This document shows positions 3,299-8,121 of a DNA stretch of 34,078 nucleotides, one piece after another. The notes under the pieces were generated by a model. The model did not search any database. It saw nothing but the letters and a program-made list of their open reading frames with translations, and had not been told where the DNA came from. Position 1 is the first letter of the stretch. The number at the start of each line of letters is the position of its first letter. The DNA lies in the NCBI GenBank assembly GCA_012033055.1, contig JAAUPR010000024.1, positions 11,519-45,596 on the forward strand, written 5' to 3'. Source of the stretch: Limnothrix sp. RL_2_0. Its GTDB lineage: Bacteria; Cyanobacteriota; Cyanobacteriia; Cyanobacteriales; MRBY01. Made by a program: the position numbers and the translations under genes.

Positions 3299-4750
3299 AT
3301 GAGTAGTCCTGAAGATTCATCTGTAAATCCATCGAATCCAGAAATCTTACGTTTACAACAAGAGTTATTGGATGCTCGCCGAGAAATCGCAGATCTGAAG
3401 CAGAAAAATTTAGACGAACAAACTGCCTATCAGGATATCCAGAGGGAATATAAGTCTTCTAAGTATTTATTGCAGCTTGTGATGGATACCCTGCCCCAGT
3501 CGATTTTTTGGAAAGATCTTGATTCGGTTTATTTAGGCTGCAATCGCCAATTTCTGAATGATGCAGGTTTCGGCAGCCCAAACCAGGTGGTTGGGAAGAG
3601 CGATTATGATATGCCTTGGACGACGGCAGAAAGTGAATTTTATATTTCCTGCGATCGCCGGGTAATGAACAACAATCAAGCTGAATATGGCATCATCGAA
3701 CCCCAGCTCGACGCAAATGGTAACAATAAATGGCTTGAAACAAACAAAGCTCCTTTGCTAGATCCAGAGGGGAATGTCATCGGTATTCTTGGGACATATC
3801 AAGACATTACTCAGCGTAAAGAAGCCGATTTTGCCCTCCAAAAGCTTAACGAGAAACTCGAACTCCAGACCGAACAGCTCACTGCAACCTTACGCCAATT
3901 AGAAACATCCCAACTGCACATCATTCAGCAAGAAAAAATGTCTGCCCTGGGTAATCTTGTGGCGGGCGTGGCCCATGAAATCAATAATCCTGTCGGCTTT
4001 CTCAACGGTAACTTAGCACCAGCGAAGGAATATGTTGCTGATTTATTTGAGTTATTAGGCAAATATCGAGAGGTATTTCCGGAGCCGGGAGCAGATATTC
4101 AAGGCTTAATTGACAAGATAGAACTAGATTATGTGCAGGAAGATTTACCGAAGTTGTTGAAGTCTATGGGGGTAGGGATTGGGCGTATTTGTAATATTAG
4201 TAATAGTCTTAGGATTTTTTCCCGCGCAGATACTAAACAACAGGTCTCTTTTGATGTACATACTGGCTTAGATAGTTCTCTGATGATTCTCGCACACCGC
4301 CTTAAAGCCAACGGCGATCGCCCAGAGATTGTCGTCGTCAAGAAATACGGTCAATTACCATTGATTCAATGCTTTGCTGGACAACTCAATCAAGTGTTTA
4401 TGAATTTGCTGGCGAATGCTATTGACAGCTTAGAAGAGAATAGCTCTGGTCAAAGCTTTGCTGATATTGAAGCTCTAAACAATCAGATCACCATTTCCAC
4501 CGACATCGATAGTGAGGGAAAGTGGGCGGCGATTTGTATTGCTGATAACGGCGTGGGTATGGATGCTGATACCCAGATGAAAATATTTGATAGTTCTTTT
4601 ACGACGAAAGCGGTGGGGAAAGGCACTGGACTGGGGATGGCGATCGCCCGACAAATTATTGAAGAAAAACATGGTGGCAAAATTGAAGTGAAGTCCACCG
4701 TTGGTCAGGGTACAACTATGATTATTAATCTACCTGTGGCTGGCATTTAA
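3299..4750 (+). CDS. Soluble PAS-domain sensor histidine kinase
   Basis: This 483-residue protein has no membrane segment. Residues about 10-55 form a charged coiled coil, and about 55-175 a PAS domain with its PAC end (VIGILGTYQDITQRKEAD). A second coiled-coil linker (LQKLNEKLELQTEQLTATLR) leads to the HisKA dimerisation region with phospho-acceptor His226 in VAGVAHEINNPVGF. The HATPase part shows the N box (VFMNLLANAIDSLEE), G1 box (DNGVGMD), the phenylalanine-containing lid (FDSSFTTK) and G2 box (GKGTGLGMAIARQII). The HEINNP form of the H box places it in the HPK4-like group common in cyanobacteria. No response regulator lies beside it, so it is an orphan kinase and its signal and partner cannot be read from context. 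The start is the first ATG, with a 131-bp AT-rich upstream gap. Confidence 0.9.
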   Translation: MSSPEDSSVNPSNPEILRLQQELLDARREIADLKQKNLDEQTAYQDIQREYKSSKYLLQLVMDTLPQSIFWKDLDSVYLGCNRQFLNDAGFGSPNQVVGKSDYDMPWTTAESEFYISCDRRVMNNNQAEYGIIEPQLDANGNNKWLETNKAPLLDPEGNVIGILGTYQDITQRKEADFALQKLNEKLELQTEQLTATLRQLETSQLHIIQQEKMSALGNLVAGVAHEINNPVGFLNGNLAPAKEYVADLFELLGKYREVFPEPGADIQGLIDKIELDYVQEDLPKLLKSMGVGIGRICNISNSLRIFSRADTKQQVSFDVHTGLDSSLMILAHRLKANGDRPEIVVVKKYGQLPLIQCFAGQLNQVFMNLLANAIDSLEENSSGQSFADIEALNNQITISTDIDSEGKWAAICIADNGVGMDADTQMKIFDSSFTTKAVGKGTGLGMAIARQIIEEKHGGKIEVKSTVGQGTTMIINLPVAGI

Positions 4751-4868: not shown

Positions 4869-5078
4869 AAAAAAAGAGAACAGGATTTACACCCGCCACG
4901 CCGTCTTACCTCAGCTTCTGACCTGGAAAATCCAGGGGGGAACATCATTACTCTACTTTCGTTTCCGAGTACAAGCTCGGTATACTGCCGCGAGTACATG
5001 ACTAGTGTTCCCGTTTAGCTCAAGCATAGATCAACAAACAATATTGGCAGTCACCAACGCGGTAGGCTTGATCCTGTT
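4869..5078 (-). ncRNA. Structured small RNA with 6S RNA-like architecture (candidate)
   Basis: There is no convincing protein here, but both ends of a ~200-nt segment pair perfectly: AACAGGAT at 4879-4886 with ATCCTGTT at 5071-5078. Further in, CCGC/GCGG segments can pair. A large open region follows and includes a tight hairpin (4922-4927 with 4931-4936, CCTGGA/TCCAGG). An apical arm is closed by GGGAACA (4938-4944) and TGTTCCC (5006-5012), continued by TCAT/TACTC (4945-4953) against GAGTA-C-ATGA (4992-5001) and tipped by CCGAG/CTCGG (4965-4980). On the minus strand the closing helix is followed by CTC and seven Ts (A-run 4869-4875), like an intrinsic terminator, and a promoter sits at the right distance upstream. 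Length, paired ends, central bubble and apical arm match 6S RNA, the RNA polymerase-sigma mimic. The 6S identity is inferred from architecture, not from a remembered sequence match. The pairing alone does not fix the strand. Confidence 0.55.
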
Positions 5079-5085
5079 AAAAGTC

Positions 5086-5115
5086 ATTTTAGATGATCTT
5101 TTTGTCTTCCGGCAA
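5086..5115 (-). promoter_or_regulatory. Sigma-70-type promoter for the 6S-like RNA
   Basis: On the minus strand a TAAAAT -10 box (plus 5086-5091) lies 7 nt before the first base of the paired 5' end at 5078. A TTGCCG -35-like hexamer (plus 5110-5115) lies 18 bp upstream of it. Four of six -35 positions match the consensus. The location just before the structured RNA is the main support; the boxes alone would be weak evidence. Confidence 0.4.
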
Positions 5116-5119
5116 ACCC

Positions 5120-5686
5120 CTAAGCTACGGCACAAACATCGGCGATCGCCACTGGACTATCAGCTTTAACACGGAGAGTTAACCTTGCCTTAGGATTATT
5201 TTCAACCCGCTCAATGGAACACTTTGCATCGCCATAAATGTGGCTGAGGGCGGTCTCTAGGTCAGGTTTGATTTCGCTAAAAGCAGCGTCAGTATTAGGG
5301 GCATTGAGGCGATCGTTACTGATATAGAGAAACTCATTGCCTTTGAGGGTGATACCCGTATCTTTTTGGAGAATAGTGCCGAAAGCGGCGGCAGATTTAA
5401 CGAGATCAACAATGGCTTCCGGATGGGGTTGATTTTCCACTTCTCCCCAACGACGCTGGGCATAGAGACCATAAAAATCCTGATGCTCCATCATGTAATT
5501 AATTTCATAGGTGACGAGCATAATTCCGGGGCCATCGGGCACATGGCGATAATCGATGACATCAATTAGGGTTCCGGCAATTTTTTCGTCGCGGATCCAG
5601 CCTTGAAAAATACCGATCAAAGCGGCTTCGTCGAAACCGTCGGGGACTTCGGCAGGAAATTTTACACAAAAACGTTCTATGTTCAC
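5120..5686 (-). CDS. Conserved hypothetical protein downstream of the nitrite/sulfite reductase
   Basis: This is a soluble protein of about 188 residues that I do not recognise as a named family. The domain-like part begins at VNIERFCVKFPAE, read from a GTG at 5686. An ATG at 5764 is also open in frame, but it adds a low-complexity stretch partly built from a HIP1 site and looks less natural. The protein is acidic and alpha/beta-like, with no signal peptide or membrane segment and only a few scattered cysteines, so a metal cluster is not indicated. It lies 110 bp downstream of the siroheme reductase on the same strand (33 bp if the longer start is right). A joint transcript and an accessory role in assembly or regulation of that reductase are possible but inferred from position only. 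Confidence 0.65.
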   Translation of the reverse strand: MNIERFCVKFPAEVPDGFDEAALIGIFQGWIRDEKIAGTLIDVIDYRHVPDGPGIMLVTYEINYMMEHQDFYGLYAQRRWGEVENQPHPEAIVDLVKSAAAFGTILQKDTGITLKGNEFLYISNDRLNAPNTDAAFSEIKPDLETALSHIYGDAKCSIERVENNPKARLTLRVKADSPVAIADVCAVA

Positions 5687-5796
5687 GATGCTTGTTTGTC
5701 CTAAAAATACTTCGGGTAGAGATAAAAGGCGATCGCCTCTCGAAAATAAACCCAGCAAAAGCATCACGGCAATCTGCTGGGCAATAGCGTTTAGTG

Positions 5797-8121
5797 CTAG
5801 TTGAGTTGGAGATTTTGTTTAACCATCCACTGCTTAAAGCTGACGGGGCTAGTGATACCCGAATCCATCATGCGAGCATTACACTCGTGGGCGGCTTCAA
5901 TAAAGAGGCGGGATTCTTCGATCAATTGCTGCGATCGCTCTAAGTTAATCGGCTCATGTTCTGTCTCTAGGGCAGTGAACAGATACTGGGCAAATTTACC
6001 CTTGGCAAAGGGGTCAAAAAAGAGTTTCGTATCATAGAAATACTTGCGGAACTCTTCAGCAATCACTTCCTTGTCGTCGGCAATGTCGATATTTTGGAAT
6101 TTCAATAGGGCTTTAGCTGCACTCACCATCGCGGCGATCGCCTTATCCGCAGCCAGTTGCACATTGCCATTTTCTGGCTCATCTAGCAAAACTGTTGCAT
6201 CAAAATGGAGACTCTCCGCATCAGCCATACTGAAATCAGTCAGCGTAACCACTTCCCCAGCACATTCACCAATACCAATATCCCCAAGGGTAAACTCACG
6301 CGTATCCGCCCAGTCCGAATAAAAAGAAGGATCTTCTTCATAACTCGGCACATCAGTGAAAGGTTTCAGGCGTTCCTTCATCTCTACTCGACCAATACGA
6401 TTAAAGAAAGCCGGGAATTTTTCGTCCCCTTGGCGCTCTTGCATGAATGTATCTACAAGGAATTCCACCACATCAGGGATCCGCTTCGACGGCAACACAC
6501 CCATCGATTTACCGTAGGTGGACGCATTATTCGCCCATTCTCCCCCAAGCACGAGGTTAAAGTGGGGCACACGACGGCGCTTCACCTGACGACTAGAACC
6601 ATAAAAACCAATCTCTGCCACCATGTGCTGGGAGCAAGAGTTGAAACAGCCACTAATCTTAATGCGGATATCCTTGACCGCCTGATTGTATTGCCAACCT
6701 TTAACCGCCATCCGACGACTCAATTCACCTGCCAGACCACGGGAGCTACCCATGCCGAGCTTACAAGTGTCAGTGCCGGGGCAAGCCGTAATATCGATAA
6801 TCGAGTGAGCACCGCCATGGTGGAGACTAATTTCTTTCAAGTCCATGTAGAGGGCTGGAAGATCTGCCTCATGTACCCAGCGAACCAAAACATTTTGCTC
6901 GACCGTAGTGCGAATAGTGTCGTTTGTATATTTCCGAACCAGCTCCGCCAAACCTCGGAATTGGGGAGAAGTGGCATCGCCTAGGGGTAAAGAAACCGCA
7001 ACGGTATAGTAACCATCCTGTCTTTGGGGATAAAGGTTGGTGGTTTTCCACTTAGCAAACATTTCGCTGTCATCAACGATCACGTCGGGAGCTACAGGGC
7101 TAGACTTGCCTTTTTCTTCGTAGCTAGAGAGTTTCTCGATCCATGTTGTCCAACCGGGATCTGGTTCGATAATCTTCCGTTCTTCAATAACTAGGCGACG
7201 GAATTCTTCAAGACCAAGTTTTTGGATCAAGAATTTAATGCGGGCTTTGTTACGGTTTTGCTTTTCGCCGAGGCGGGCAAAGACGCGGAAAATCGCTTGG
7301 GAGAGAGGGAAGATTTCTTCGAGGGGGACAAATTCTTCGTAGAGTTTCGCTAGGAAAGGTACGGAACCTAAACCGCCACCAACATAGGTTTTAAAGCCTT
7401 TTACTTCAACGCCATCAATGATTTTTGTTTTAGCAATGAAGCCGAGGTCATGCATGGAGGTGAGACCGCAGGGGTGGTCTTCGCAGCCGGAGAAGGCGAT
7501 TTTCATTTTACGACCGAAGTCTTGGATATCGCGGTGTCCGAGGAAAAAGTCTGTTAATTCTTGGGCATGGCCTGTGACATCAAATACTTCATCGTGGCAA
7601 ACGCCTGCAAGGGGACAAGCTGTTACGTTACGAACTGAATTACCACAGGCTTCCCGCACAGTGATTCCCACAGCCGCCAAACGACGGTGCATGTCGGGGA
7701 TGTTATCGAGGGAGAGGAAATGGAGTTGAATATCCTGACGGGTGGTGATGTGAATGATGTTGTCGGAATATTCTTCGCAGATATCGGCGATGGTGTCCAT
7801 TTGTTCGGCGGTCATGCCACCGTAGGGGATCTTGATGCGCTGCATGCCGGGGGCTTGCCATTTGGTGTCGGGGCCTTTTGTCAGTTCGACTTTGGGGAAG
7901 GGGATTGCTTTGGATTTTTCGCCGTCGTTTCGATAGCCGTTGTCGTAGCGTTGACCGTAGGCTCCACGACGCAGACGGAGTTCGGCAAAAACTTTTTCGT
8001 CTAGCTTGTTTTGGCAGCGGAGTACCATCTGGTTTTCAAAGGTATCGATTTCTTCGGCCATCTGTGGGGAGATGCGATCGCCGAGGACGTCTTTCCAAGT
8101 TTTGTTCGTTGTCGTGGTCAT
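5797..8121 (-). CDS. Ferredoxin-type nitrite/sulfite reductase with C-terminal HEPN-like extension
   Basis: The protein has 774 residues, compared with about 510-650 for usual plant-type nitrite or sulfite reductases. It has the duplicated ferredoxin-like and catalytic halves of the family: HITTRQDIQLHFL and NSVRNVTACPLAGVC in the first half, and the siroheme/[4Fe-4S] ligands C447-x5-C453 and C492-x3-C496 (TACPGTDTC, SGCFNSC) in the second. These coordinate the coupled cluster and siroheme used for six-electron reduction. After about residue 620 an extra ~150-residue helical region (AADKAIAAMVSAAKALLKFQ, later EESRLFIEAAHECNARM) resembles the HEPN-like extension seen on some reductases. The motifs do not decide between nitrite and sulfite. 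No molybdenum nitrate reductase or cysteine gene lies nearby to help. The start is ATG 8121, and 198 bp separate it from the gene upstream. Confidence 0.85.
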   Translation of the reverse strand: MTTTTNKTWKDVLGDRISPQMAEEIDTFENQMVLRCQNKLDEKVFAELRLRRGAYGQRYDNGYRNDGEKSKAIPFPKVELTKGPDTKWQAPGMQRIKIPYGGMTAEQMDTIADICEEYSDNIIHITTRQDIQLHFLSLDNIPDMHRRLAAVGITVREACGNSVRNVTACPLAGVCHDEVFDVTGHAQELTDFFLGHRDIQDFGRKMKIAFSGCEDHPCGLTSMHDLGFIAKTKIIDGVEVKGFKTYVGGGLGSVPFLAKLYEEFVPLEEIFPLSQAIFRVFARLGEKQNRNKARIKFLIQKLGLEEFRRLVIEERKIIEPDPGWTTWIEKLSSYEEKGKSSPVAPDVIVDDSEMFAKWKTTNLYPQRQDGYYTVAVSLPLGDATSPQFRGLAELVRKYTNDTIRTTVEQNVLVRWVHEADLPALYMDLKEISLHHGGAHSIIDITACPGTDTCKLGMGSSRGLAGELSRRMAVKGWQYNQAVKDIRIKISGCFNSCSQHMVAEIGFYGSSRQVKRRRVPHFNLVLGGEWANNASTYGKSMGVLPSKRIPDVVEFLVDTFMQERQGDEKFPAFFNRIGRVEMKERLKPFTDVPSYEEDPSFYSDWADTREFTLGDIGIGECAGEVVTLTDFSMADAESLHFDATVLLDEPENGNVQLAADKAIAAMVSAAKALLKFQNIDIADDKEVIAEEFRKYFYDTKLFFDPFAKGKFAQYLFTALETEHEPINLERSQQLIEESRLFIEAAHECNARMMDSGITSPVSFKQWMVKQNLQLN

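What the first reader, a model, noticed from the sequence alone, without database searches (positions are those of the whole stretch)
4869..5115. Unannotated 6S RNA-like small RNA with its own promoter and terminator
A 370-bp gap holds a ~200-nt segment whose ends are perfectly complementary over 8 bp. Its interior gives a hairpin-containing bubble and a long apical arm. The minus strand has -10 and -35 boxes placed exactly before one end and a T7 run after the other. This is the architecture of 6S RNA, which cyanobacteria need for recovery from nitrogen starvation, but primary sequence identity could not be confirmed by eye.
Basis: partly seen in the sequence, partly recalled or inferred. Interest (0 to 1): 0.65.

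Follow-up and report, generated by a model that had tools for sequence, protein, structure and literature searches.

The report
Cyanobacterial 6S RNA gene
The gap holds an ordinary cyanobacterial 6S RNA gene, a well-known small RNA that binds RNA polymerase, with a lineage-specific tweak at its ends.

Summary
Rfam's 6S model RF00013 matches window 4886-5071, minus strand, over its full length, at 74.8 bits against a cut-off of 46.4 (E 3.4e-13); no other Rfam family matched the gap at E <= 1. It is the only 6S match found in the genome. Of 60 genomes searched, the own one included, 58 match at E <= 0.001 and 56 are over the cut-off. Compensatory changes support the fold: 19 of 41 pairs, 0 of 500 shuffles as good. 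The window's genus includes Picosynechococcus sp. PCC 7117. Promoter spacing and an outer helix just before a run of seven or more T recur in 6 of 6 genus loci. Best explanation: a normal 6S (SsaA) RNA that mimics an open promoter; that function is carried over from known 6S RNAs, not tested here. Two modest lineage details: the nearest upstream gene is not purK, as it is in 25 of 60 loci, and no strong separate terminator hairpin was found (0 of 6 genus loci against 26 of 54 others), so the outer helix may itself end transcription. Ordinary, low interest.

The parts
4869..5078 (-). predicted 6S RNA transcript, about 200-210 nt, from AACAGGAT to the T7 run
   Evidence: ends inferred from promoter, closing helix and T run; no transcript data
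4886..5071 (-). 6S RNA core, RF00013 positions 1-187 of 187
   Evidence: 74.8 bits, gathering score 46.4, E 3.4e-13
5086..5115 (-). promoter-like site TTGCCG, 18 bases, TAAAAT
   Evidence: 9 of 12 positions, not more than chance alone; spacing and -10 type kept in 6 of 6 genus loci
5071..5078 (-). 5' arm of outer closing helix, AACAGGAT
   Evidence: exact complement of 4879-4886; pair probabilities 0.95-1.0 for the six pairs scored
4879..4886 (-). 3' arm of outer closing helix, ATCCTGTT
   Evidence: ACAGGAT/RTCCTGT kept in 6 of 6 genus loci
4869..4875 (-). T7 run, likely transcription end
   Evidence: sequence; T run of 7 or more, 1-3 bases after the outer helix, in 6 of 6 genus loci

Best explanation
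It is the single-copy cyanobacterial 6S RNA gene (ssaA/6Sa type), read from the minus strand. The RNA folds into a rod: a closing stem, a central bubble with a hairpin on its 3' side, and an apical arm (supported here by model match and covariation). Inferred from known 6S RNAs: the bubble mimics an open promoter and holds RNA polymerase with its housekeeping sigma factor, is released when the polymerase copies a short product RNA from it, and helps the cell change sigma factors when nutrients such as nitrogen return. Inferred for this genus: the outermost helix followed by the T run ends transcription, so that no separate terminator hairpin is needed.
For: Full-length RF00013 match over cut-off; one copy found in the own genome; a match in 58 of 60 genomes, own included, and in 56 of 56 of those at least 90% complete and at most 5% contaminated; 96.9% of cells paired, 19 of 41 pairs with changes on both sides, 0 of 500 shuffles as good on each of five measures, slid controls 34-47% paired (57 of 60 loci used); promoter spacing and outer helix kept in 6 of 6 genus loci. 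Role in cyanobacteria from PMC5721685.
Against: Genus scores of 65-75 bits are lower than most of the order, which reaches 113. The structure counted was derived from the same alignment, which favours it over the slid controls, and shuffles do not keep relatedness. No transcript or binding data. The promoter alone is no better than chance. The gene is not beside purK, its reported place in six other cyanobacteria (PMC1242208, passages read).
Confidence: 0.97

Rival explanations
1. A decayed 6S pseudogene that keeps the fold but is no longer transcribed.
For: Lower score than most of the order, and a location unlike the purK one.
Against: It is the only 6S copy found in a genome that is 97.45% complete; promoter spacing, closing helix and T run are kept in 6 of 6 genus loci while the bases around them differ.
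Confidence: 0.02
2. A different structured element, for example a long 3' untranslated structure of the upstream gene, or an antisense RNA read from the plus strand.
For: The plus strand also folds better than shuffles, z -2.93; the gap lies just downstream of an ORF on the same strand as the RNA.
Against: The RF00013 match is on the minus strand and is the only Rfam match in the gap at E <= 1; the minus strand folds better.
Confidence: 0.01

Closest known systems
6S / SsrS RNA, Rfam RF00013; cyanobacterial form called SsaA, 6Sa or Yfr7
   Same: Full-length model match, closing stem, central bubble, 3' side hairpin, apical arm.
   Different: Nearest upstream gene is not purK; outer helix of 7-9 pairs abuts a T run and no strong separate terminator hairpin was found.
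   Same: Same upstream neighbour gene, same promoter spacing, same closing helix and T run.
   Different: On the downstream side the window has a histidine kinase gene next to 6S; L035 has the CAAX-protease gene there.

Membership tests
6S RNA (RF00013) | score above the curated gathering cut-off over the full model | tested here: met
   74.8 against 46.4 bits, positions 1-187 of 187
6S RNA (RF00013) | conserved rod with closing stem, central bubble and apical arm, supported by covariation | tested here: met
   19 of 41 pairs with changes on both sides, 0 of 500 shuffles (57 of 60 loci)
6S RNA (RF00013) | transcribed as a discrete RNA of about 185-200 nt | not testable with these tools
   no expression data; promoter-like site and T run only
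6S RNA (RF00013) | binds RNA polymerase holoenzyme and templates product RNAs | not testable with these tools
   needs biochemistry
cyanobacterial ssaA locus as first described | lies directly downstream of purK (PMC1242208, passages read) | tested here: not met
   nearest upstream gene is a protein found only in this genus among 60 genomes; purK is on another contig, C102. Location is a common trait of the locus, not a defining trait of the RNA family.

The most novel reading that the evidence does not exclude
In this genus the 6S RNA ends its own transcription: the last helix to form, joining the first and last bases of the RNA across the whole folded rod, acts as the terminator helix, so that correctly folded 6S RNA is released while misfolded copies read through.
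Probability: 0.3. Interest if true: 0.35.

Novelty: new member of a known kind. Interest (0 to 1): 0.15.

Why it matters
It confirms, by model and covariation, the 6S gene of one more cyanobacterium, in the genus that (recalled, not from a call) also holds the laboratory strain PCC 7002. The self-terminating end, if real, would give a simple test of whether a long-range closing helix can serve as an intrinsic terminator.

Tried and rejected
Plus-strand reading: rejected, because the family match is on the minus strand. A second 6S copy in the own genome: none found. A product-RNA start site was not predicted: two searches listed no paper whose title or abstract start reports a mapped cyanobacterial start; most listed papers were not read. 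PCC 7002 expression data for 6S: searches listed 3 and 6 papers; only passages of PMC6202907 were read, and they give none. Passages of one paper on 6S in lactic acid bacteria were read for terminator and product-RNA details (PMC8414754); none of the 12 passages shown (of 19 places) speaks of a closing helix as terminator. One search for that idea found 39 papers holding 2 of 3 terms, 15 listed, of which this one was opened, so absence from print is not claimed.

Local terminator hairpin before the T run: it exists but is weak, -5.2 to -5.5 kcal/mol in 6 of 6 genus loci, and competes with the closing helix; it is not excluded as the real terminator.

Rows dropped: one search gave 61 RF00013 matches; 60 were used for context and terminator counts (the partial second match of G015, fetched as L062, was left out). 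Alignment A1 used 57 of those 60; G014, G042 and G033, with longer 6S matches of 212-215 nt, were left out. The purK count looks only at the nearest same-strand upstream ORF of 150 aa or more, so purK further away is not counted and 25 of 60 is a lower bound for its neighbourhood.

Full report
What is there. The stretch 4869-5078, minus strand, lies in a 369-bp gap between a histidine kinase gene (3299-4750, plus) and an ORF without Pfam or NCBIfam matches (5120-5767, minus). Its ends pair over 8 bp and a T7 run follows 3 bases later. It folds at -73.2 kcal/mol, z -3.89. The arrangement of complementary ends plus T run is rare by chance (2 of 200 shuffled windows), although the promoter and terminator scans taken alone are at chance level.

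What it is. A scan of the whole window against Rfam gave one match at gathering score: RF00013 6S RNA, 4886-5071 minus, 74.8 bits, full model length. One copy was found in the own genome. Of 60 genomes searched (own included), 58 match at E <= 0.001 and 56 are over the cut-off; the two without a match are 75% and 61% complete. On 57 of 60 loci the consensus structure has 96.9% of cells paired and 19 of 41 pairs with changes on both sides, and no shuffle of 500 reached any of the five measures; sliding the partners drops pairing to 34-47%. The structure was derived from the same alignment and the sequences are related, so these controls lean in its favour; the independent Rfam match does not depend on them.

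Host. One relative that the tool lists as of the same genus, G003, has a contig of 3,087,720 bases, the length of the record of Picosynechococcus sp. PCC 7117, so the window comes from that genus.

Lineage details. In 6 of 6 genus loci the promoter-like site is TTG-N3 (TTGC in each), an 18-base spacer and a TAA(A/G/T)AT -10 box, with 6-7 bases to the AACAGGAT start. In 6 of 6 the outer helix ACAGGAT/RTCCTGT sits 1-3 bases before a run of seven or more T; 5 of 54 other loci pass the same loose test. A separate terminator hairpin of -9 kcal/mol or better, ending within 90 nt, was found in 0 of 6 genus loci and 26 of 54 others; in the remaining 28 none was found either, so absence of one is not peculiar to the genus. 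The counts are not independent, since the genus shares one ancestor. The weak local hairpin remains an alternative terminator.

Context. A homologue of the ORF upstream of 6S on L002, identified as purK, is the nearest upstream same-strand ORF of at least 150 aa in 25 of 60 loci, and in 0 of 6 genus loci; there purK lies elsewhere. The purK neighbourhood is reported for Synechococcus PCC 6301, Synechocystis PCC 6803, three Prochlorococcus strains and Synechococcus WH 8102 (PMC1242208, passages read). The genus instead has a protein found in 6 of 60 genomes, all of this genus.

Function. Known 6S RNAs bind RNA polymerase in place of promoters and are released by product-RNA synthesis; in Synechocystis the deletion delays recovery from nitrogen starvation and changes sigma factor recruitment (PMC5721685: abstract, Background and Discussion read). 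The same paper notes that 6S rises only slightly in starvation there and may act differently from E. coli 6S. All this is carried over by homology, not shown here.

Verdict. A correct call of an ordinary, well-known RNA gene. New only as a member in this genome, with a small, untested idea about how its 3' end is made.

Noticed in passing
window 5120-5767 (-): The 215-aa ORF directly upstream of the 6S gene has no Pfam or NCBIfam match and was found in 6 of 60 genomes, all of this genus, each time next to 6S.
   Followed up: partly
L038:2889-3100 and L039:2880-3091: Two genomes of one other genus have a longer, 212-nt 6S-like RNA that scores only 35 bits, below the cut-off; where the extra bases lie was not worked out.
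   Followed up: no
L050, L051, L052 (G029): One 8.5-Mb genome has three 6S matches, one beside purK and two much alike elsewhere; true paralogues or assembly contamination (listed as 3%) were not told apart.
   Followed up: no
window 3299-4750 (+): A PAS histidine kinase gene lies between 6S and the CAAX-protease gene in the window; in G001-G003 the CAAX gene adjoins 6S directly.
   Followed up: partly
window 5797-8121 (-): A 774-aa protein with nitrite/sulfite reductase domains, below the cut-off of each of the 11 NCBIfam families it matched, has homologues of 84.6-89.6% identity near 6S in 5 of 5 genus relatives.
   Followed up: no
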